From Hysterium pulicare CBS 123377 (lineage: Eukaryota > Ascomycota > Dothideomycetes > Hysteriales > Hysteriaceae): a stretch of 64,000 nucleotides of DNA. The translations under genes and the position numbers were made by a program. The stretch spans positions 186,001-250,000 of the forward strand of contig AJFK01000202.1 in NCBI GenBank assembly GCA_000467715.1, written 5' to 3'. The notes under the pieces were generated by a model. That model did no database searches. It was not told the origin of the DNA and worked only from the letters and a program-made list of their open reading frames with translations. Of the stretch, positions 4,372 through 52,337 are shown one piece after another (position 1 is the first letter of the stretch; every line of letters starts with the position of its first letter).

Positions 4372-5723
4372 AATAAGAGTGATCAAGATTGTTCATGGAG
4401 AGACGACTACATCCCCAGTGATCTGTTGGACAACCCTGGGCGATGGGCTGAAGGCATAGTCTATTAGAAGTCAATTGGTGCTTGAGGAGACTTTCATTTC
4501 GGTGTTTTCATCCTTACCGGGTTCTTGCGGAGACTGGACTATTGCGATTTCAAATATCCTCAATCCGATTATCTCCTGTGCACTTTTGTACCTGAAACCA
4601 TAGTAGAAAGTGACTACGGCTTGGATTCAAACGATAACATGACTCTTTCATACATACAACAGATTTCTCTGCGTGGAATCGAATATTAGTTTGCGGTATG
4701 ACGCGCTTGCTGTTGCATTCCAAGACTCCTTTCAGATTCCAAGGTATGTCCTTGTAATCATACTAGATGCGCTTACTAACGCATCACGTGTCGCATGACC
4801 TCTCGTCCTCTTAGGCCTCGTTGGAGACAAAGAAAAGAAAGGAAACCCCAGCGCATGCATAATCACATCAATGTTATCGCTGTAACCGAATCGTGTGCTT
4901 TGGGATAGGGCTCAAATGGAGTTTCTCACCACGAGAGCATCTGGTTCCATGCTCTAGTATCTAATCTTGAACTAGGTCTTCATGGAAAGAGGATAACTTC
5001 CTATATTTTATTGATTGGGTAAGTTCAGTTGAAGGTTTGTCTAAGTCAAGATTTTGAGTCTGCGCTGCTCCCGTTAAAGTCCATCTTCTCACTCCAGCGA
5101 TCCGCTTGCATGATTTCTCAACAGGTCAAGCGAAATCGTTCACCAAGGTTCTTTACAGCCACCATGTCATCTGTTCCCTTCGTGCCTCGGGCTTGTCCTT
5201 GAAGCTCCAGCTCCTCGCTTTGTGAGCTTGCCTTCTGAGTGCGGCCAGCTTTTCCAGATGCGGACAACAAACACACTCTACAACAAAGGGATTCAGGCCG
5301 CTTATTTGACGTCTTGATCTTCGTTGATGGGGTTTAGAGATGATTCTCAATCCCTTCTTCTCCTATTCTTCGTCTCTACGTGTGACTTGGATTCATTGGT
5401 TTAGTCAAGTTCATGCTTTTACTTTTCCTACCTATCCAACAGCAGAAGGCTAGGCGAATGAAAACCTCAACCCCTCGCTCAGGCCGGATACTCCTCTAAA
5501 ACTACGTTGCCAAGTTCAAGGCTGTACGCGGACAGCGAAAAGAGTCATTACGGGCTTAGCACGCCAACTAAACTCTGGCGATCTATTACACCTGTCGCCA
5601 ATACCTATATACTGTTAGGTGTCCGAGCCACCTATCCACACTTAAATCCGAGAGCCTTACTCTACATATATCTCGAAGACAGATTTATCGAATTCGATTA
5701 GACGATACCACCACATCGGCAAT
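4372..5723. other. Intergenic region, no gene recognised
   Basis: Holds the calmodulin 3' untranslated region at its left and the promoter of the large orphan gene at its right. Small open frames (for example 5153-5350 minus and 5507-5701 plus) show no recognisable domain or splice partner. No tRNA or repeat was found by eye. Confidence 0.5.
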
Positions 5724-8700
5724 ATGGACGCAACACCTCCTCAGGAGACCTTTTTGGAAATCATGAGGTTGGCCGGACGCCAGAGTAACTATGCATCTAG
5801 GGTCGCTGGCCTGACAACTCAGGGGAAGAATCCCAGAACTTTTGAAGCTGAAATATTAGAAGAACAAACACTGCGAGAACCTTTTACATACTGGGATTGG
5901 CATGCGCTGAGCGAGGCGGACTGGTATAAAGGGATGGACGTAAGAAAGGAGCGTCTTTGCCATGGCCGCCGACGGATACCTGCTAATCAGCTTAATGCCC
6001 ACGGCTTCTGGCTTGGAAAAGAAAGATGGGAGAGGTTCAAGTCTCGGATCAATGACCAAAATAGACATATGGTAAAAAAGATTGCTATGTCTCATTGGAT
6101 GGTTCTCGAAGATTTCCGTTGGATTGCCAGAGAGTTGCCAAATCTAATCGCATTGGACTTGAGCGACCTTGGTGAGTTCAGATTTGATGAGTTCCTCAAC
6201 TCACATGGTCCAGACCGGCAAAGAGAATGCCCCGATTGGATGGATATTGTAAAAGCATTCGAAGAAGAAGGTGATCGGTGGTGTGCTCTCGACGATGACG
6301 ACCTCAGCCATTTCACTTGTATATCCGAGAATGATGAACTCAATTACAGATTATGTCAATGGGCCTTGAACAACAAACTAGCCTCAGCGCGTATCAGCCT
6401 ACATGATTTGATCATAGCCAGACAAGCTGAACCGTTCAGCAGATCAGCAGCTATAAAAAAGCAACTCAGGAACAATGAAAAAATAATGACAGATCGTTGG
6501 AGATCTTGCGAAGAGCTTATAAAAGATCAAAAGAAAGTGAATAAAGAGCAGAGAGAGGTGTCCGAGACCCTAAAGCAAATTCTGGGCCGGAAGCTTAAAA
6601 GAACGAATATCTTTGGAAGACTGAAATGGTTAGGGGTCAGGAATTGGGCAGACGGACAATATCACAATCTACATTACGGGCCTGAACGGAGACCTAGGCG
6701 GCCGACTGATCCGACTGATGGCCGGATACCGACTCGTAGTTGGTATGGTAACGTTGCTGAGACATTCATTAGAAGTGAGTGTTTCAGGCTTCCGATTTTT
6801 CCATGACTTGCTGTCCTAATACTAATTCTTGTTACTCAGGATGTACAAGTCTCAAAACACTGTCTATTCGAGGCTCGTATGAACAAGACCGCCATATTCG
6901 TGTGGCAGGATCTGATCCGGCCGCCGAATCACGTCATCAAACTCACCAAGAGATCTGCCAGCTAATTCTCGGAATAAAAGACAATCTTGCTGATTCAGTA
7001 GAAACAATAGAATTGCGACAATCGATCGATTACATGGATATGTTCCTTACACAACTTTCATTGCGTAAGCCGACGATCAAAAACATAGGTATAGACCTTG
7101 GCGCTTGGGTGCAAAAGTTTCCCCTTGAGATTCGATCCGGTCAGCCTAGGCCACATCGCGACATGATCGGTATAGAGACATTTGAGGGCAGACAAGGGTG
7201 CCCCTTACGTCAGCATCATGACAGAAGACACAGGTATAGAAGGTACCGGGTCTCGACTCTGGCCGAAGAATTGTACAGGCTTTATTCGGATTTCCATTTG
7301 AAAGGCGTAAACATCGGGGCTATCCCAATCGAACCGGAATTTCCAAGCACTGACATTCTTACACCTTCTGTTCTAGTTCAAGGTACCAACCTAGAGGATC
7401 CTAAAAGTGGCAAGGAATTTCGCGATCTATTCGAAAAGGATAGAGATCTCGACTCCCCACGAGTGTTTCAGTGGTTGAACGATTCGCTTCAATGGCGACC
7501 TGTGTTTGATTGGGACCAATTCATGGTTACTGGCGATAGGCCAATGAGACGGAATCGGCTTCGAAGAATGATTGATCGTCAAGACACAAAGAGAGTTAAA
7601 GAGCTTCCAATGATTCATCGACGCTTCGAGGCTCTGAAGACCGCTGGCATCCCACTGCACATCTACATCGGCAATCGCAAGGAGACCACACCTGGCAACG
7701 AACCCGAGGTAGAAATGCCCATAAAAGAAGGGGACGAGGAATTGTGGGGTGGTGATGATGATGAAGCTGACAATACGGCGATCATCAAAAGAGAAGCTGA
7801 CAGTAGTCTCTACTGGGGATGGCCTCAAGATGATCAGTGGTGGAAGAGATGGCTTGAAAAGGACTTCTCTGCAAATCTAGAAACTATCGCACCTTTGGTT
7901 GACAACCTCAGTATACTCTATTACATGCGGAACCCGCTGGACACCTCAAGGCTTGCCGAAATCAACGGCGTTGATCCAGATGGCCTGCGTAGATTCAAGG
8001 AGACTTTGAAAGATGCGCCGCCTCCACGTCCTCAGAAAATGGCAAATAGGGGAGCCCTTGGGGCATCTCGGCGCAACCCCATCATAAGACTTGCAGAGGG
8101 GTGTCGTGCCGCACCAGCTACTGGTTTTGATGCCAACGATCATCCTTCTGACGATTCTGATCTTGAGGATGAGCCACCACTTGAGCCAGGAGATGATGAT
8201 CTAAGCCGGCCATCACCTCCTCTACTTCATCTTGCCCGGCGAGCAGCATATCTTCGTGAGGCAGTGGGTTGGCAACGCTTCTGGGAGCAATATGCTCTCC
8301 GTTTCGAATCGCTCACGATGCTTCGAGTCCGTATGCCCAGATGTTTTGACAAGATTTCCTCATGGCGACTTGCTAAGCTACTGAATAAGAATGAAGGTTG
8401 GTCTATGCTCGAGTATCTCGACGAGAGGCAGAAAATACAAACAGACGCGGATCGAGAGGAATACTATGATGTCGAACAGGCTCGAGACATTTATTTTAAC
8501 GAAATAGATTCGCGGGGGTACCCTTTCTTCAATTGGGACGGATATACTCCACTGCGCTTCTTATGCGTCCCGCCCAAGTCTGATCCCGTACAGTGGCCAA
8601 GCGGTAGATTTGTCAGAAGGGCCTGGGTGTGGACATCGCAAAAGGAAAAGGAGAAGGAGCAAAAGGATCCAAAATTTGCGGAAGTTCAATTCAAAAAGCG

Positions 8701-10702
8701 CTCCTTCACGGCCACAGATGCTAGTTCAACAGCGGCGGATGAAGGCGAGGCACTAGGTAAAGCATTAGAGAGAGCCGAAGCCGCCGCAGAACGAGAAGCC
8801 AACGCGTACAAGGAGCTTTTTCTAGCAATCAAGCCACCTCTAGATGTCCAGCTACGTCAAAAGTTGGAAGAAAGACGGCTCTTTGAAAATCACCGGGATG
8901 CTCATTGGCAAGCAAGGTCTAGTGGAGCAGTCAAGTATATTCTGGGTTTGCAGCAAGCAGGAAGAAGTGACGAAGAAGTATTGGACATCTTACGTCAGGA
9001 CATCCAGGGCCTGAGAGCTCGCAACGAAGAGGAATTAGGGCAGCAACCGTCCGCTTCCAGGAGAGCAGAAATGGAAGAGGACTTGTTCTGGTGGGACCAG
9101 ATTCACCAAGCTTTGACCCAGGGTACCGACCCTCTTCTTGTAGCTGATCTGGCTGACATGCGTGTCGGAAGGCGAGGCCAAATGCAGAATTGGCGGATGC
9201 CTCCATCGAGGGATAGGCTGGCTCGTATACATATCCCTACTGATCAAGAGATGGCTGTAGAACCGGAAGGTGAACCCCGGCTCGCTGAATTCGACCAAGA
9301 GTTCAGATACATGATAATTGAGGAATGCAATCGACTGAAACAACTATTGGAGAACGCATCTCCCGAGGAAGCCCCAGAGATTCGAAGAAGATGGACGTGG
9401 TTCAACTACTGTCGTCTCGCGTTTCTTTTTGGAGAAGAGAACGAACGTGACGCAACGGCCTTCGCAAATGAATGTTGTCGGAGATTAGAGCTTGAAGAGT
9501 TGGCAAGACGGGCACAGCCACTTCCCGACGATTCCTCATCTAGCGATTCCTCATCTAGCGATTCTTCTTCTAGCGATTCTTCTTCTAGCGATTCTTCTTC
9601 TGAAGAATCCTCAGAAGATGAAAGCATTCCTCCAGGAAAGGGAGAGGGCCCGACCACAACGCGACCAGATGATCAGGTTGAAGGCGAAGCTGAAGGAAGT
9701 GGTGGGACTAGACCAGGCAAAGAACCAAGCACAGAGACAGCACCTGTACCCGCCACCGCAGGGCCAAATTCTGGACCTATCAAGTCCACCACGCAGCAGC
9801 CGCCAGCCGTGAAGCCGAAAAGTAGTGAAAAGGCCCTAGGAAAGAGTACCAAGGCAGGTAGTCCGACAGAACCGCCACCAAAAGGAGGTAAGGTTAATGT
9901 GCCCGCACAACCGCCAATTGAAAATGGGAACCAAACCACACATCCTCCTCCTGGAGAAATCGGTGTTATATCCCAAGGAGGCACAGATGCAAGTTCCACG
10001 GGTCCAAGTTCAGGACCATCCACGCAGCAACCGCCAGTTGAGAGGTCGAAGACAGGCGAGAAGCCTCAAGGGAAGGTCCCCAAGGCAGGCACGAAAAAAC
10101 CGCCATCAAGAGGAAATAAGGATAAAGGGACTGCACAACCGCAAATTGAAGATGGGAATGAGACCATGGATCCTCCTGAAGCAACCCCGACTGTACCCCA
10201 AGAGGGCAATGATCCGACTGCCGCTGGTAGCGCAACGAAAGCGCCACACAAGGCCACGACGAAGGAGCGTGAGCCGACGAAGAAAGGCGGAAAGCGGGGG
10301 CGTGAGGATGAAGGAGATGGAGAAGAGGAGGAGGAAGAGGGTAGAAAGCCTAAAAAGCCAAAGAAGGATACAAGCAAGGAGAAGACACCGCCGGAGGGTG
10401 AGGGCAAGCAGCCGCCGGAAGCTGGACCAAGCGAAGGGCACCCAGGCGAAGAACATTCAGAAGTGGAGGAACAACCGCCAGCAAAGAGAGGTGGAAAGGG
10501 CGGAAGAGGCCGCGGAAGAGGAAGAGGAAGAGGGCGGGGTCGAGGTCGAGGTCGGGGAGGTAGGGGAGGCGGAGGTGGAGATGCGGGACCAAAGAAGCCT
10601 CCCAGGCCACCGAAGCCTCCACCTCCGCCGCCTGCGGGTGGTACTGTTACTCGTACGACGAGAAGTAAAGGAGGGGCAGGTTTGAGTAGAGGGCTGGATT
10701 GA
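5724..10702 (+). CDS. Large orphan protein, 1637 aa, Ser/Asp repeats and RGG-like tail
   Basis: No family recognised. Two exons (5724-6774 and 6840-10702) flank a 65-nt intron with donor GTGAGT, branch CTAATACTAAT and acceptor TTACTCAG; phases fit and the frame is otherwise open. Residues 1 to about 1240 are mixed charged sequence rich in Arg, Glu, Trp and Asp, without membrane segments; the pattern around SLKTLSIRGS suggests an F-box/leucine-rich-like surface but this is weak. Residues about 1246-1272 are Ser/Asp repeats (DSSSS units, 15-nt DNA repeats). Next come two imperfect copies of a roughly 75-residue Pro/Lys/Thr unit (DNA about 9760-9995 and 10000-10235). Then an acidic/basic mixed tract, an Arg-Gly tract (GRGRGRGRGRG, about 1569-1605), a Pro run and a basic end. 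The RG tract suggests nucleic-acid binding or condensate behaviour; this is inference. It may be lineage-restricted. Confidence 0.85.
9526..9606 (+). repeat. In-frame 15-bp tandem repeat coding DSSSS
   Basis: Five consecutive, nearly identical copies of AGCGATTCCTCATCT or its variant with TCTTCT lie inside the large orphan gene, each encoding a Ser-Asp-Ser-Ser-Ser unit. The unit length is a multiple of three, so copy changes keep the frame. It is a likely site of length polymorphism. Confidence 0.9.
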
Positions 10703-41204: not shown

Positions 41205-43945
41205 ATGACTGACCCTTTATCTGCCTTTGGAGCCACTGCCAGTGCTGTTCAGCTGGCAGATGCGGCTTTGCGTGTGAGCGTCGAGGCTTATCGCTTCCTC
41301 TCAGCTGCGAAAAACGCCGGAAAGGACGTTAAGGCTTTGAGAGATTGTGAGTAGCAATCCCATATCCTGCGCCTACGCGGATCACTCAGCCTCATCTTTG
41401 TATCATTGGCTCGCATTTTGCATGAGTCTTTGTCTCCGTCAAATCTTGTCATCGTGCCACGCATATAAGTGATTATTGTAGAGTTATTTTTGAAGGCTTA
41501 GCAAGCGCGCTCACAGTCCCCCCAGGTTTACTCGATGTTGAAGCCAATGTTCGCAGCTTGCGCAATTACATCGATGAATTTTCTAAGTCGAAAAACGCTA
41601 CTGAAGAGTTCGAGGTCTTGCCGGAGGTTATCACCAGAACAGTCATTAACTTTCGAGATGATCTCAATTTACTTCGCTCAATTTTACCAAACTTATACAT
41701 TAGCCTTACCAGGAAGTTCAAGTGGGCGTACGACAAAAAGAAGGTCGAGGAAATAATGAAAAGACTCACTCAACGAAAAGTTGATGTCACTCTTGCCCTT
41801 ACTATCTTGGGGAGGTGTGTATCATTCCCAAAGCTTTGTTATTGAGATTGGATTTTCTCCTAAACATGACCACAGGTATCACGATATATGTAGCCGTCGC
41901 GACAATCAAACGCTCTATAGCACGCTCACCAAAGCGCATGAGACTACGTCTGCGCAACTTGAAGCCCTTCAACAGTCGATATTTGGGAAACTTGATGTGA
42001 TCAAGGAGACTACTAAGAGAGATTGCGAAAGGCATCAACGGACACGATCGATCCAAATGCTAAAGCCAAGCACTAACGCTCGAGTGTCTGACCAACCAGC
42101 TTTACTTCGAAAGCTTGATGATATGGAGCACAAGCTTAATGACATGAGCAACACCATCACATGCGTCAAATCTACTACGCTTGTATCCGCATCCAATGCG
42201 GATCATTTAGCAAGAATGTTGAGGGCTGAACTATTGCGTGTGCTTCAACCCATCGTCGAGGATCAGTTCACCAAGTCTGAGCTTGGCAATGAAGTAAACA
42301 ATCGCCACATGATGGAGATAGCCGAACGCGTTAGCAGTCATGTAGGCCAACAAGCCACGTTACAGGATATCTTCAAAGAAAGCTCCGAGGTCGACGTGCA
42401 ACAGGATTCGGGAACAGGCCCCCAAGCATCAGACTATCCTGAAGCTATCCATAGTTCACATCATAACAATCAGGGAGGCCGGGAGAGCACACCGATCGCA
42501 TCGGAACTCACATCAGATTCGATGTGCACTACAGGCTCGCCTTTCCGAACTTTCAGAGTCTTCCGCAAGCGCTGGCTTCTAGAATGGCGCATAGGCCACC
42601 TTGAAATCGAGGTAGAAACAGTCCGTAGAAGGACAACGTATCTGCCCAAGAACAGCTCCGACTTCACCATAAAGCTGACATTTAGGCCACGATTGGCCTG
42701 TTTGGCGATTCATGGAATGTCAATAGTGTATACCACGGCACCAAACCAACGAGGGTATCATCAATTTGGCCCGCTGATTTCTACTTTCCCAATTATTTCT
42801 TATAACAATCCCATCTGGAAAGCTATACAGCATGGAGATCTGGAACAAATTCGATCATTGTTTGCACAGGGTGCTGCTAGTCCACGATGTCAGAATGAGC
42901 ACGGTACAACGCTTCTCCATGTACGTATTTCGCCCTACCGAAGGACTTTGCTATATCGCTTTCCATGTTTCCCGCCGCGTTTGCCTTCTAATTACGCCTT
43001 GAAGGCAATCTAGGTTCAAGTATATGAGGAGCTAATATACATATTCTGTTTAGTGGGCGGTATTTCAAGGACGTAAAAGCGTCTGTAAATACTTTATCGA
43101 ATTGGGCATCGACCCTTACCAAAAAACCTTGTATGCAACAACACCCTTATGCGTCAAGCTACTAACGGAAGATTAGAACCGGTGTAGACGTCTTTGACTC
43201 GCTTTTCCTCGCAGCATTCATACCGTCCTCTAAATTCGCGGAATTTGGGACCCCACTTGACCCTCTACAATTCATTGAGGAAGCCGGTGGTAACATATCC
43301 GAAATCTACAAAAAGTATATTGATATCGGAGACAGAGTCACGATTTTCAGTTATGATATGAGAACGCCTTCTATTCATATAGACGTCGATATGTTGAGGC
43401 AATTAGCCCAATTCACTCATAGCAAAGAGGTGGACATGTGGACTGTGATCGACCGCACACATTATCCACCGCTAAAGTTTCCATGTACCGATTCGCACAA
43501 GTCACTACAATCACTCTTGCAGGCTGGCCTTGATCCAAACTTCTTAGGAGGACAGTTCAACAGACCACTCCTCCTCAGGGCTTTGAACGGAATTGCGAAC
43601 GCGAAAAGGTATCCGGAAAAGATGGAAGGGGAGCTTCCGCTCTGGGCTCTGCTCGAAACACTTATCAAAGCCGGCGCGGACATCTTCTACATGCATTGTA
43701 CGGAGCGTGAAATCAGTACCCCTACTGATTGTGCAAGGGGCTGGGGAGTCGAACATGAATGGTGTAGGGCTTTGCGAGTGTGCGGTTATGATCCTTGCCA
43801 AGTCTACTATGAAGATTCTCGCCGCATCATCGAGCAAATTGGGCTGTACTGTGCGACGAGAACGGGAGTTGATGTGGGTCCACTGACACCACCGTCAGGT
43901 CAAGGACTTAGACGTAGAGTTGGGAGACGCTTAGATGATCCTTGA
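41205..43945 (+). CDS. HeLo/STAND-N domain plus ankyrin-like protein, copy 1 (773 aa)
   Basis: Exons: 41205-41346, 41526-41814, 41876-42920, 43054-43130 and 43177-43945; phases consistent, no stops. Residues 1 to about 140 begin MTDPLSAFGATASAVQLADA and look like the fungal N-terminal domain of STAND proteins (HeLo-like), a helical bundle that in relatives triggers membrane damage and cell death. A helical, coiled-coil-like linker follows (about 145-330). At about 368-492 lies a block I do not recognise, including RIGHLEIEVE, SIVYTTAPNQRGYHQFGPL and STFPIISYNNPIW, whose last part GAASPRCQNEHGTTLLH is the start of an ankyrin repeat. More ankyrin-like units follow (YFIELGIDPYQ; LLQAGLDPNFLGG; LIKAGADI). 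No P-loop NTPase is present. Acceptor of intron 1 could also be 9 nt upstream (41517). Copy 2 lies 815 bp downstream in the same direction. Confidence 0.85.
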
Positions 43946-44760
43946 ATGTCAATATACCAATCCGCACTCACGTCGTGATTGAAGGCACATAGCTCATTGC
44001 TTCGTCATGGTATAGCACCCGAATTCGGGCGGAAGATAAGAAGTTCATCTTTATCGAAATGCAGCACTCCAACCCTGCTTTAAAAAGCTTAAATGGCCTA
44101 TGTAAACTCTTAGCATCTGATTTTATAAGGGTAGACAGAGTTAACTATTCTTCTACTTCGTCAAAGTTATTACAGGCAGACTCCTAGGTTAGAACGGATA
44201 CCATCACGTGCACGTGCCTGTTAAGAATCTCCCTATCCGCTCCGTGACTTGTCACCACATACCTGAAACCCTTTGCTTGAAGAACAACAACTTCCCGCAG
44301 GAAAAGATCCCAAGTTTATCAAAATAGCGATAAATCTACATGTGCATGGTCTACTTACAGAGTTACTTTCAGCACAGCACTTCGAAATCAGCGTAAACCA
44401 ACGAGAACTCAACTCAAAATCAAAGCAACACCGTTACATCCTTCAAAGAAATCAACCGTAAATGAGAGCTTTAAATACAATCACCGCTTACGCGTGGTTG
44501 AGCTTAATCAAACTCTTTTTCAAGAAATCAGCCTAGGCTCCTTTCATCTTCTTCATTGGTTACCATGACGCAGACACTGACATCCCGAAAGGCTGCATTT
44601 CAGCCTTGCAGCCAAGTAAGCAGGCTGTGCAAAACCTTGCTTCTTTCAATTTATTATGACTCTCTGTTCTCCATCAACTTCTGTATCGTGTCACATTCAA
44701 ACCATTTTCAGTTTTAGTTTAATCTTTCTAGAGTCCTGGCTGTTACACGAATATTGAGCG
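43946..44760. other. Spacer between the two HeLo-ankyrin genes
   Basis: AT-rich, with no supportable gene. It holds the 3' region of copy 1 and the promoter of copy 2. A short frame at 44273-44461 lacks features. Confidence 0.45.
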
Positions 44761-47747
44761 ATGGCTGACCCAGTGACTGCTTTCGGTGCCGCGGCCAGTG
44801 CTATCCAGCTTGCAGACGTAGCCTTGCGTGCAAGTCGGGAAGCCTATAGCTTTCTTTGTGCGGTGAAGGATGCGAAGAAGGACGTTCAGGCATTGAGAAA
44901 CTGTGAGTAGCAGCTGTTTAATCTCAGCTTTCAGCTCATTGAGCTCAATTATCAAGATGCTGACATCCTTTCCAGCTTTACGGGTTGCCGAATCGAATCT
45001 ACGCAGCCTTCGGAATTACATCGCTGAGTTCAGCAAGTCAAAGAACGCTACGGAAGAATTTGAGGTTCTACCGGAAGCCATTACAGCAGCTCTCATAAAC
45101 TTCCGAGACGATATTGATCTTTTGAACACTATCCTTCCACAAGATCTATCTATTGGTCTCGCTCAGAAGTTTAGATGGGTGTTTGAGAAGAAACAAATGA
45201 GGGAAGCGATCAAAAGATTTGACCAGCGGAAGATTGATCTCATCCTCGCTCTAAGTACTGTAGGGGAGTAAGTATGACCGGTTTTCTCTGACGTATTAAC
45301 CAAAAGCTTTCCATCACCGCTAAACTTTGTAACAGCCTCCATAGTCTTCGCGGCCGTCGTGATCTTCAAAATCTCCACTCAGAGCTCAACAAGGCCAACC
45401 AAACAACTCTAGTACAGCATGCAACTTTTGAGCAAACGATATCTGAGGACCTTAACGCAGTTGTAGAAGGCCTTGGCAGGTATCAGGCAGACCAAGATCA
45501 GCAATTACGATCACTAAAGCAGAGCACTGACATACTTACGAACAACCAGTCAACGCTACTTCATGGCCTTGATGGAATTAATAGTACACTTAATACCGTC
45601 AATAATAACCTTCTGAGTATCACGTCGACAACCAGTGTATCTGCATGGAATCCAGATCACCTGTCAAGGATTTTTCGAGCTGAGATGCGTAGGGTAGTCA
45701 AACCCCTTATAGAGGATCATTTTACTAAGTCGGAGATGCGAAACGAGGCTGCTCTACGTCAAATGAATGATATGATAGAACGTATCAGTGAAGACTTGGG
45801 GCGACAAGCAACAGTTGACGATGCCTTCTCATCTAGATTCAAGCCAAGGGCTGAAACATGTCAAGAGGGGAAGGAAGAGCATTCACAACCCTTAGGAGAC
45901 AACTCTTTGCCGGACGATATGGATTTACCAAGTTCTAGTTGCTCTAGATCCACGCAGTCCTCCTCAACTAACATGATTCCCTGCCCTCGCGCTCGAATCC
46001 GCGACGTCAAAAGTTTCCAGAAGCTCTGGCACTTTAAATGGAGCATTGGCGACCTTGAGGTTGAGATCCAAAGAATCCATCGAAGAGGGTTTTCATCTTG
46101 CGACTACTGCAATTTCTCTTTACGGATTTGCTTCCGGCCACGCCAGACATTACTTTGCGTACCCGGCATTTCAATTTGCTATACTACGGCACCGGATCAG
46201 AAAGGATACTACCAGCTCGCTCCAATGCTTTCGACCTTCCCGATAATTTCCGTTGAAGACCCCATATGGGATGCCGTAGAAGATGGAAATCTGACTGGCA
46301 TGCAACTAATGTTTGCACGTGGGTTGGCGAGTCCACGATGTCAAGACGAAGATGGTACGACACTCCTCCATGTAGGTATTCTACTTCGTACTACTTGTAG
46401 AATCGAAGTATTGTAATGATACCGTCACCTACTGTGGGTGTCATTATTCGTCGTAGTACGGACGTCTGTGACCGCATAAGTCTGGCCAGATCCTATCCTA
46501 TATGCTACTTTCCGAGTAAACTCAAGTATGGCAACTTGTATTAGCATCTGACACCGAGTCAAAAGCGGTCTTGTAAGCGGGTAGCAAAGGTGGGAAGCGC
46601 AGACCTAGTCTCCAGAAACGACGAATTTTGACACCTCGTGTGATTATACATCAATTTAATCACAGTGAAATCCACGTCCGCATGGGAAGGGGAATCTTCA
46701 TTGTTGATTGTCATCTTTCAGAGCTGATCTTTACTGTGTCAGTTCGCTGCATTCATTGGGAACTTCGAAGTTTACAAATATTTGCTTTCTTTGGGAGTTG
46801 ATCCCTACCAACGGGATTTGTGAGTAACTCCTTGCAGCACGTGTTTATAAATATGCTTATCATAATACAGGCGCGAAGATGATGTATTTGCAACCTTTTT
46901 TCTCGGGCTGATTTTCTTCACATTAGGATACGACCATAGTTGGCCATCCCCCCAAAACCCAACCACATACTGGAAGCGGATGGTGGAGGAAATGGGTGAA
47001 GACATACACGATACTTATGAGGATGTGGTCCAAGTAACGCACTTAAGGGTGGGTCCGAAAGGTATTCCAATTAAAATAAATGTTGGCAGGCTCACTGAAC
47101 TGGTCGAGTATGCCGGTTCTAAAGGTATAGACCTCTGGTGTCTTATCATCAATATGTGGTCTCGGAGATTAATGACCCCATGTAATGATGCTCAGAAGGC
47201 TCTTCTATCAATGCTTACAGCTGGTCTCGATCCGAATAACTTATGTGGACCTTACAATAGGCCACTCCTCATTCAGGCCCTAGGCCGTATAACAATCGCC
47301 AAGAAGGAGTTGCGAGATAGGAAACTGGAGGGCACCGGTGCGGAAAGCGTGGGTCCAGGAAATGTAGATTCAGTGAGTGTGGATTCAGAAATTATGGACT
47401 CAGAAAGTGAGGATGGACCTGCTCCAATTTGGTGCATAGTTGAGACGTTGATCCGGGCAGGAGCGGACATCGATCATATCGAGAACGTCGAGGGTATAAC
47501 TTCTTGGAATGAGGTTAGAACTCCTACTTGGTATGCGATAAGTTGGAATGTCCAAGAGGAGTGGTGTACCGCATTACAAGCTTGCGGATATGACCCGGTC
47601 GAAGTGTACGAGGAGGACGAACGACGCCGTATCGATTACATGAAACTCCAGGGCGCAAAGAGAAGTGGAGTCGATGTCGAAGTCTTGGGGGCTCCGTCAG
47701 CTTTGGGTCTGAAATACAGAAGCAGTCGACAGTTAGAGGATGATTAA
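44761..47747 (+). CDS. HeLo/STAND-N domain plus ankyrin-like protein, copy 2 (807 aa)
   Basis: Tandem paralog of copy 1. Exons: 44761-44902, 44976-45267, 45336-46371, 46743-46819 and 46871-47747. First exon (142 nt) and fourth exon (77 nt) have exactly the lengths of copy 1, and all phases agree. N-terminus MADPVTAFGAAASAIQLADV is the HeLo-like domain; the helix YIAEFSKSKNATEEFEVLPE matches copy 1 almost residue for residue. The linker is Gln/Asn/Ser-rich and diverged. The shared unknown block is at about 369-490 (SICYTTAPDQKGYYQLAPM, STFPIIS, SPRCQDEDGTTLLH), followed by ankyrin-like units (YLLSLGVDPYQ, MLTAGLDPNNLCG, LIRAGADI). An acidic Asp/Ser/Glu insert (about residues 672-695, DNA 47340-47412) separates two of them. 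Intron 3 is 371 nt against 133 nt in copy 1. Confidence 0.85.
46372..46742 (+). other. Enlarged intron 3 of HeLo-ankyrin copy 2
   Basis: Donor GTAGGT at 46372 and acceptor GTGTCAG ending at 46742 enclose 371 nt, nearly three times the equivalent intron of copy 1 (42921-43053). No terminal inverted repeat or target duplication is obvious, so an insertion origin is only possible. Confidence 0.6.
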
Positions 47748-49797: not shown

Positions 49798-51447
49798 TTG
49801 CTAAAGCACAGGCTGGCGTTTGTGCCTCCGAATCCAAAACTGTTGGATAAAGCCACGTTGAGCGGCTTCTGCTGAGCTGTATGAGCGACGTAATTGCAAT
49901 TGAATTCTGCGGATGGATCGCCGGGCTTATCGAGATTGAGCGTTGGCGGAAGGGTGTTCTGGGTGTTGTCAAAACTAGTGGAAATGTACGTGTAGCGGAC
50001 GAACTCACGTGATGTAGAGCGAGAACAGTGAAGATCGCTTCCACTGACCCAGCAGCACCTAGAAGGTGCCCAATTGCGCCTTTCGTACTACTGACATTGA
50101 TATCGGATGCTTTGCTCTTACCATTCTCCCCCAGGAGAAGATCTTTAATCGCCCGATTCTCTGCAGCATCTCCAAGAGCAGTAGAAGTTGCATGGGCGTT
50201 GATGTAGTCGACTGCACTAGGTTGGAGGCCAGCATGTCGCAAGGCATGTTTCATTGCTAGGAATGGACCATGGCCATCTTCTCGTGGTGCAGTCATGTGG
50301 TAGGCATCGGAAGAAAGGCCATATCCTTTTACTTCTGCGTAGATGCGTGCACCTCGGGATTTGGCATGTTCCAGTTCCTGTGAATTTAAGTTAGCTTTCA
50401 CGCAGATATTTAGTTTGAAGAACAAGCGTGTACTTCAAGAACAGCGACTCCAGCACCTTCTCCGATCACAAATCCAGCCCTGTCCCGATCAAATGGTCTT
50501 GAAGCAAGGTGTGGCCGATCATTCCAATCCGTTGCCAGACTCCTCGCTCGGGAAAACCCGGCGATGGCAAGAGGATGGATGCAAGATTCCGCCCCTCCCG
50601 CTACCATCACGTCCGCATCGCCATACATGATGAGGCGGGCTGCATCTCCAATGCTGTGTGCGCCGGTAGTACAAGCTGTGGTGGCTGCATGATTAGGACC
50701 CTATATGTTCTGTGAGGAACCGAAATCTGAACTAAATGGAGGAGGGGACACAAACTTTGAAGCCGTATCTCATGGATACGTGTCCGGCGGCTAGGTTGAT
50801 AAGGAGGCGAGGGACGAACAAGGGCGAGACTTTTCGGTAGCCCTGGTGGGATCATTGGTGAAAGCACGTGATGGATCATTAGGGTACTTACGCCTTTCTC
50901 GAATGCTACTGTCGTCTCATAGACGTCGTCGAGACTTCCGATACCTGAGCCCATATAAACTCCCTGGGTCTCTAGTTAAGGAAAAGCCAAGTGCATCATT
51001 GGAATTCAATCATACCGTAGCTTCTAGATCCTCTTCTTTCGTAGGTTGCCATTCAGCATCTTTGAGAGCTTCTTGAGAGGCTACCATGGCGTACTGTGCG
51101 AACTTTGCCATCCTCCGTTCATCCTGATATTTCATCAGCAACCCATTCTAGAATTATCATCTCTTCCAAGCTTGCAACTCACCCCAGGATTCAGCCATTC
51201 TTTCGGATTCCATTTTCCATCGTCTTTTTTCCCTTCTGGAACCAATGCAGCAATTTGGCTTGGAAGAGCTGCAAATTGAGGACTTCTATCCTTGATGGAA
51301 ACAACTCCGCAATGGCCGTCAAGGAGACGTTTCCATGAACGGCGCACGCCTGTAAGAATCAGTAGGATGTGGAAGACAAGGTTGAGGAAACGCACCTATT
51401 CCGAGAGGTGTTACGGCGCCTAGGCCTGTTACTACCACTCTGCGCAT
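49798..51447 (-). CDS. CEM1: Mitochondrial beta-ketoacyl-ACP synthase
   Basis: Condensing enzyme of mitochondrial type II fatty-acid synthesis (FabF family), needed for lipoic acid precursors and respiration. Starts [20 protein letters not shown] at 51447 (first exon 51447-51396). About eight exons are inferred from good splice signals and family continuity. The nucleophile Cys is in [17 protein letters not shown]; the catalytic His residues are in [11 protein letters not shown] and [10 protein letters not shown], with the conserved Lys in SSTKGAIG; the C-terminal glycine motif is [11 protein letters not shown]. It ends CFSKYQ. I see no long mitochondrial presequence; the Arg-rich start is the usual compact form, so targeting is assumed from the family. 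Interruptions in the single frames are introns, not mutations. Confidence 0.9.
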
Positions 51448-52337
51448 GGCATGTTTTGATGATGGAGGATGCTGTTTGGGAGAGGGTGATCAAAAGTGAG
51501 CTAAGCCATGCTCGAGCCACATGTGGCTTTCTAGCGCGATATGCCTGACGGATGTGATCTCCGTTAATTTTAACATTACACTTGATATCAATCTCTGGTT
51601 TCAACTCAAAGGTACAGGAATCCTTCAAGTGCTTTCAATACGTCTTAGATTGTCTCTAGCCTGCAACAGAGTCGACATAGGCAATAGATCGAGCAAATAC
51701 AAACGAGTCATTTCTACCACATACTTGTTAAGCCAACAGAACCTATCGTAGAAGTCATAAAGCATCATCAGAAGAGACAAAAGTACTTTTCTTCTCCCCA
51801 TTTCGCCCAGCACCCAGAAGAGAAAAAGGCCTATTAGAAGAAAAAGAACTCTACTACTCCCAAAATCCCCCAAAGGAATCTAAAAGTACAAAGTAATTTT
51901 CCTTGCAAGAACCTCTTAAACCACGTAGTACAAACAAAAACAAGGAGGGTGGGGGCAGAGAAAAAGAAGGGTGTGATAGGTGCCCATTTGCCCTGATGTA
52001 GTAGAGAAGATGCTATACTAAGTCAAGATGACATAAGATTCCACGTAAAAGACTCCCCATGGTCCCATCATTTCCCAGAACCTGCCGGGAAGACATTAAA
52101 AAAAGGAACAGTTTCTGTTACCACTTTTCCTCCCGCAATGCAACGACAAGACGCAGAGAAAAGAAATAAAGAATGCCCCCAAACGTCTAGCAGGGTGAGA
52201 TGATAGGATAGGTAAATCTGCCAACGTTCCTACACAAACTCCAAAGCAGCAAAGTGAAAGGTTTGCTTGGCTGAAACCAACGATGGCTCAACCAAAAAGA
52301 AATCCACCAGCATGCTTTTGAGGGACTGTTGACTTGA
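51448..52337. other. Intergenic region with purine-rich tract
   Basis: Upstream of CEM1 on one side and 3' of the two-RRM gene on the other. A-rich and AGAAA-rich from about 51770 to 52170. No coding sequence supported. Confidence 0.45.

What the first reader, a model, noticed from the sequence alone, without database searches (positions are those of the whole stretch)
41205..47747. Tandem pair of NTPase-less HeLo/STAND-N plus ankyrin-like proteins
Both genes fuse a domain of the type normally found at the N-terminus of fungal NLR-like STAND proteins to ankyrin-type repeats without a NACHT or NB-ARC NTPase. Exon 1 is 142 nt and exon 4 is 77 nt in both genes and all intron phases agree, so this is a local duplication with both copies open. 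They could be truncated immune-type receptors, decoys, or helpers whose N-domain is released by another trigger. Sequence of domains is seen; the cell-death role is knowledge of HeLo-type relatives; the partnership is inference.
Basis: partly seen in the sequence, partly recalled or inferred. Interest (0 to 1): 0.8.

Follow-up and report, generated by a model that had tools for sequence, protein, structure and literature searches.

The report
NLR-like fungal gene pair lacking NTPase
Two neighbouring fungal genes encode proteins that join the kind of front end found on fungal immune-type receptors to ankyrin repeats but lack the usual ATP-driven switch; they are old duplicates in a larger family of such genes, so the arrangement is real but not unique.

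Summary
Two five-exon genes (41205-43945, 773 aa; 44761-47747, 807 aa) share intron phases, a 142-nt first exon, a 77-nt fourth exon and 42% protein identity. Neither has an NTPase hit, nor does the window. Ankyrin repeats are significant. The N-domain misses Pfam's cut-offs, but its profile matches the HeLo-like (PF17111) N-domains of the same genome with 98.8% probability over 137 columns; reversed and shuffled controls reach 2.8%. It is not a classical HeLo domain. Its two best single matches sit on NACHT-ankyrin receptors, with an NTPase-less one close behind. A recent truncation is unlikely: synonymous sites are saturated, and at least seven further genes here show the layout. In seven of eight genes examined, pair included, one intron splits the first ankyrin repeat at the same place. 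PigL, which names PF17111, is itself called an ankyrin-repeat protein. I read the pair as members of a standing family of NTPase-less HeLo-like/ankyrin proteins, probably receptor-related scaffolds or executors. A cell-death role is untested.

The parts
41205..43945 (+). Gene 1: exons 41205-41346, 41526-41814, 41876-42920, 43054-43130, 43177-43945; 773 aa
   Evidence: splice consensus and agreement with gene 2
44761..47747 (+). Gene 2: exons 44761-44902, 44976-45267, 45336-46371, 46743-46819, 46871-47747; 807 aa
   Evidence: splice consensus and agreement with gene 1
41205..41812 (+). Gene 1 HeLo-like N-domain, residues 1-143 (intron 1 inside)
   Evidence: Profile-profile match to PF17111 set; coordinates
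44761..45265 (+). Gene 2 HeLo-like N-domain, residues 1-144 (intron 1 inside)
   Evidence: coordinates
42543..42800 (+). Gene 1 middle module, residues 367-452, no Pfam name
   Evidence: 48% identical in gene 2 with the ankyrin part included; also seen in C372 and two C355 genes; coordinates
45997..46251 (+). Gene 2 middle module, residues 366-450, no Pfam name
42807..43125 (+). Gene 1 clear ankyrin repeats, residues 455-516 (intron 3 inside)
   Evidence: Pfam Ank_4 E 2.1e-9; coordinates
46258..46814 (+). Gene 2 clear ankyrin repeats, residues 453-514 (intron 3 inside)
   Evidence: Pfam Ank_4 E 8.5e-8; coordinates
42921..43053 (+). Gene 1 intron 3, phase 0, splits the first ankyrin repeat after TLLH
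46372..46742 (+). Gene 2 intron 3, phase 0, same position
43177..43945 (+). Gene 1 last exon, perhaps degenerate ankyrin repeats
   Evidence: No Pfam hit; weak PDB matches of the joint profile
46871..47747 (+). Gene 2 last exon, perhaps degenerate ankyrin repeats

Best explanation
The two genes are old tandem duplicates in a standing family of fungal proteins built as HeLo-like N-domain, helical linker, short conserved module and ankyrin repeats, with no STAND NTPase. Shown here: the domain order, the class of the N-domain, the lack of an NTPase match, constraint on both copies, and further genes of this layout in the same genome. Inferred: the ankyrin part binds a cellular or foreign partner, the helical linker lets copies associate, and clustering exposes the HeLo-like bundle, which acts at membranes or recruits other HeLo-like proteins. 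Clustering would stand in for the ATP-driven switch of an NLR. Whether the two copies act together is not decided by anything here.
For: N-domain profile against the genome's PF17111 set: 98.8% over 137 columns, controls 2.8% or less. The two best of 27 single N-domains, 92.8% each, belong to NACHT-ankyrin receptors C408 and C36. The N-domain is the most conserved part of the pair: identity 62.8%, dN 0.249, against 0.422-0.602 elsewhere. The start of exon 3 is modelled as a long helix (block pLDDT 59-83). At least seven more genes show the layout, with a common intron position. From print: HeLo and HeLo-like domains are membrane-targeting, cell-death-inducing bundles in tested cases (PMC12881547, passages).
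Against: An NTPase-less N-domain (C581, L041) scores 91.4%, almost as high as the two receptors, and five other NTPase-linked N-domains score 34.5% or less. The first helix of the pair is less hydrophobic than 22 of 26 (gene 2) or 23 of 26 (gene 1, gene 2 left out) others compared. PigL disruption left pigment production unchanged (PMC8241920, passages); no cell-death role is reported in those passages. No receptor gene in the window. The only structure models are poor.
Confidence: 0.42

Rival explanations
1. Plain ankyrin scaffold or regulatory proteins: the HeLo-like bundle is only a dimerisation or adaptor module and the proteins have no role in immunity or cell death.
For: By, 19 of 25 PF17111 matches in this genome have no NPHP3_N match within 2 kb downstream. 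PigL, an ankyrin repeat protein, has no discernible function in its cluster (PMC8241920, passages). The pair sits among housekeeping-type genes. First helix of modest hydrophobicity.
Against: Two of the three best single matches of the N-domain are receptor N-domains; the N-domain is the most conserved part.
Confidence: 0.35
2. Executors or adaptors that are switched on by a separate NLR through a contact between HeLo-like N-domains or through the ankyrins.
For: NLR-activated HeLo and HeLo-like executors are known (passages). This genome has many NLR-type NTPases (58 NPHP3_N matches), and two receptors carry the N-domains most like the pair's.
Against: The known systems pair neighbouring genes and use amyloid motifs. 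No NTPase match lies in the window. I noticed no such motif by eye and ran no motif search.
Confidence: 0.13
3. Truncated or decaying receptors that lost their NTPase.
For: N-domain and ankyrins resemble those of NACHT-ankyrin receptors of the same genome.
Against: Both frames open, synonymous sites saturated while dN is 0.465; conserved module and exon pattern, and other genes of the layout.
Confidence: 0.05

Closest known systems
PigL of Monascus (ankyrin repeat protein; Pfam's copy names PF17111 'PigL_N' after it)
   Same: HeLo-like-class N-domain by Pfam's name, and ankyrin repeats (PMC8241920, passages). That PigL lacks an NTPase is inferred from its description.
   Different: It lies in a pigment gene cluster; the pair does not appear to.
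HeLo-like - NACHT - ankyrin NLRs (C36 and C408 of this genome)
   Same: Same class of N-domain (92.8% each) and ankyrin repeats
   Different: They have an NPHP3_N/NACHT-type NTPase and, in C36, ankyrins read in one long open frame; the pair has a linker and module instead
HELLP and HET-S, NLR-activated HeLo-like and HeLo executors
   Same: Related helical-bundle class for HELLP (HeLo-like; passages)
   Different: They carry C-terminal amyloid motifs and lie beside an NLR gene; the pair has ankyrins and no NLR in the window
Protease-repeat proteins that act with fungal gasdermins
   Same: An effector domain can be fused directly to ankyrin, WD40 or TPR repeats (PMC12881547, passages)
   Different: The effector domain there is a protease, not a helical bundle

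Membership tests
HeLo-like N-domain (PF17111) | Direct match to the Pfam model over its cut-off | tested here: not met
   PigL_N E 0.019, 14.8 bits against a cut-off of 27.2; pair not listed
HeLo-like N-domain (PF17111) | Homology to the family over the domain's length | tested here: met
   Profile-profile 98.8%, 137 columns; controls 2.8% or less; 97.9% for the pair alone
HeLo-like N-domain (PF17111) | Four-helix-bundle fold and membrane or cell-death activity | not testable with these tools
   The N-domain is spread over two exons and was not folded; no bench assay
Classical HeLo (PF14479) | Match to the HeLo family | tested here: not met
   E 0.013, 15.8 bits against 23.2 (gene 1 only); profile-profile 20.2% over 25 columns against 6 of 8 genomic HeLo matches
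Fungal NLR (STAND receptor) | NACHT or NB-ARC NTPase | tested here: not met
   No NTPase family among Pfam matches of either protein; no match in the window
Fungal NLR (STAND receptor) | C-terminal superstructure-forming repeats | tested here: met
   Ankyrin, E 2.1e-9 and 8.5e-8
NLR-activated HeLo-like executor (HELLP type) | Neighbouring NLR gene | tested here: not met
   No NTPase match in the 64-kb window
NLR-activated HeLo-like executor (HELLP type) | C-terminal amyloid signalling motif | not tested
   No motif search was run
PigL-type HeLo-like/ankyrin protein | PF17111-class N-domain plus ankyrin repeats | tested here: met
PigL-type HeLo-like/ankyrin protein | Sequence similarity to PigL itself | not tested
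   PigL's sequence was not in any collection used

The most novel reading that the evidence does not exclude
A lineage of fungal sensor-executors in which a receptor-type HeLo-like bundle is fused, through a helical linker and a conserved unnamed module, to ankyrin repeats, so that clustering and not ATP hydrolysis is the switch. It would be a third layout beside NLRs and NLR-activated executors, kept as a multigene family with its own exon signature.
Probability: 0.25. Interest if true: 0.65.

Novelty: new member of a known kind. Interest (0 to 1): 0.36.

Why it matters
Surveys of fungal NLRs start from the NTPase (for example PMC12258605, passages), so proteins of this layout fall outside them. 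In this genome 19 of 25 PF17111 matches have no NPHP3_N match within 2 kb downstream. If such proteins can give the same output, the fungal non-self repertoire is undercounted and the NTPase is not needed for every HeLo-like sensor. If they cannot, they show that the domain has ordinary uses and should not by itself be read as immunity.

Tried and rejected
Classical HeLo: weak and partial. SesA: no match in the window. Other sub-threshold Pfam matches of the N-domain (PMEI in gene 1, Glyco_transf_88 in gene 2 and others) were dropped as chance, because neither of the two named occurs in both copies. PDB profile matches of the PF17111 set (chemoreceptor E 0.00032, viral spike, designed coils, MLKL E 0.039, MLA10 E 0.089; 140 matches to E 10, 60 shown) and of the pair-plus-C372 profile (a designed PPR protein at E 3.2e-9, viral fusion proteins) were not used: helical or repetitive targets, no HeLo entry among those shown. 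MakB, a helical toxin component, appears at E 0.36 and is chance-level. The models of gene 2 exon 3 (mean pLDDT 45.6) and of its middle module (42.3) were too poor, so no fold search was run. A recent duplication was rejected. The upstream regions share only short matches (best E 0.24).

Rows left out or chosen: the PF17111 alignment A4 used 13 of the 25 matches and A5 6 of the 8 HeLo matches (two with in-frame stops left out), both chosen by me. One search used all 25, cut at 150 residues, plus C36 and C30. One search used 28 N-termini: the pair, C372, C36, C30 and 23 of the 25 (two whose extracted piece did not begin with M left out). In one search the filter itself asked for an ankyrin-like continuation, which favours the reading; four of eight genes (gene 1, C138, C30, C32) showed a further passing acceptor, and C372 only one that does not look like ankyrin. 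The C138 donor is GC, not GT.

Full report
What is there. Two genes on the + strand have five exons each, with first exons of 142 nt, fourth exons of 77 nt, intron phases 1, 2, 0, 2 and GT-AG ends. The proteins, 773 and 807 aa, are 42% identical in BLASTP. The models rest on splice consensus and agreement between the copies; no transcript was available.

Domains. Pfam finds ankyrin repeats in both (Ank_4 E 2.1e-9 and 8.5e-8), no NTPase, and only sub-threshold N-terminal matches: PigL_N E 0.019 in gene 2, HeLo E 0.013 in gene 1. The pair is also absent from the genome's lists of PF17111 and HeLo matches. [quoted passage not shown] As a profile, the pair plus one relative (C372) matches a profile of 13 of the genome's 25 PF17111 matches with probability 98.8 and E 4e-17 over 137 columns; the pair alone gives 97.9. 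Reversed profiles give 2.7 and 2.8, eight column shuffles 0.1-0.3. Against six of eight classical HeLo matches the probability is 20.2 over 25 columns; the PF17111 and HeLo sets compare no better with each other (14.1). So the N-domain is HeLo-like, not HeLo.

Relation to receptors. All 25 PF17111 matches plus the N-domains of C36 and C30 were compared singly with the pair's profile. The best two, 92.8 each, are C408 (L037) and C36, both with an NPHP3_N-type NTPase and ankyrins. An N-domain without an adjacent NTPase, C581 (L041), follows at 91.4, then C289 (L045, 84.6), C30 (73.7) and C138 (L024, 71.7), also without one. Seven of the 27 are NTPase-linked; the other five of these score 34.5 or less. 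So the link is to two particular receptors, not to receptors as a class. Comparing, 6 of 25 PF17111 matches have an NPHP3_N match within 2 kb downstream on the same strand and 19 do not.

Not a recent truncation. Between the copies synonymous differences are saturated (pS 0.775 overall), dN is 0.465 overall and 0.249 in the N-domain. Identity over aligned residues is 62.8% in the N-domain, 39.5% in the linker, 47.4% in the middle module plus ankyrin and 42.2% in the C-terminal part. The layout recurs in C372, two C355 genes, C138, C30 and C32, read as DNA, and in C22, placed by coordinates only (PF17111 match at 50648-50950, module and ankyrin match at 51901-52257). No NPHP3_N, NACHT or NB-ARC match falls in these gene stretches; those searches read exon by exon at E 0.001. 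The nearest is about 10 kb downstream of the C372 gene. In eight genes, pair included, a donor begins directly after the TLLH-type motif of the first ankyrin repeat: GT in seven, GC in C138. In seven of the eight an in-phase continuation of the repeat follows an acceptor; C372 is the miss, and four genes also had another acceptor that passed the filter. The middle module without its ankyrin part is recognised in C372, C355a and C355b (47.7, 41.7, 67.7; the best shuffle 3.8) but not in C138, C30 or C32 (0.6 or less). Kinship with those three therefore rests on N-domain class, repeat position and intron.

C-terminus and structure. The last exons have no Pfam match alone; their profile has four weak PDB matches at E 0.021-0.051, two named as ankyrin proteins, one of a designed series that I recall as ankyrin-based, and one design of unknown kind. 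AlphaFold models of gene 2 exon 3 and of its middle module are poor (means 45.6 and 42.3); the one usable feature is a helix at the start of exon 3 (first five blocks 59-83).

Surroundings. Of ten window frames searched, nine matched Pfam and none is NLR-like: NicO nickel transporter, ketoacyl synthase, FAD/NAD oxidoreductase, ETF, mRNA capping enzyme, an alpha/beta hydrolase, YL1, ribosomal S24e and Ecl1. On this contig the nearest NPHP3_N match is at 85325 and the nearest HeLo match at 119922, about 140 and 107 kb from the pair.

How it may work. Inference: ankyrins bind a partner, the linker favours association, and the HeLo-like bundle gives the output. Support is the closeness to two receptor N-domains and the conservation of the N-domain. 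Against it: a first helix less hydrophobic than most compared, no neighbouring receptor, and PigL, an ankyrin repeat protein whose disruption left pigment production unchanged (PMC8241920, passages). A plain scaffold role is almost as likely.

Known or new. I searched the library for PF17111 or its names, PF17111 with ankyrin and NLR, HeLo with ankyrin, HeLo-like with phrases for a missing NACHT, ankyrin families in filamentous fungi and PigL. None of the papers listed there is, by title and abstract start, about an NTPase-less HeLo-like/ankyrin family; the listings were cut at 15 or 20 rows. I saw passages of nine papers, none in full, and most subscription journals are absent. PigL indicates that the layout already exists as an annotated protein. 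I file the pair as a new member of a known kind.

Noticed in passing
L067 (C289:11100-17100), reverse strand: A PF17111-class N-domain frame is followed by a frame that matches the G-protein alpha subunit family (E 3.4e-31). Whether they form one gene was not settled.
   Followed up: partly
L069 (C287:19100-25100), forward strand: A PF17111-class N-domain frame is followed by a leucine-rich-repeat frame (LRR_8 E 9.2e-16). One study found no LRR in fungal NLRs (PMC4986451, passages); whether this is one gene was not settled.
   Followed up: partly
L050 and L051 (C355, about 138 kb and 156 kb): Two further genes of the HeLo-like/ankyrin layout lie about 18 kb apart on opposite strands, 57% identical over the searched stretch: perhaps a second local duplication.
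   Followed up: partly
C372:55371-55901, + strand (L071): An NPHP3_N match lies about 10 kb downstream of the C372 relative on the same strand.
   Followed up: no
C346:4707-5171, + strand: A stretch 32% identical to the C30 N-domain (E 7.8e-15) with stops inside the matched frame, near another PF17111 match at C346:325-627.
   Followed up: no
window 6779-10699, + strand: A single stop-to-stop frame of 1307 codons, not searched; the 386-codon frame before it (5646-6803) has no Pfam match.
   Followed up: no
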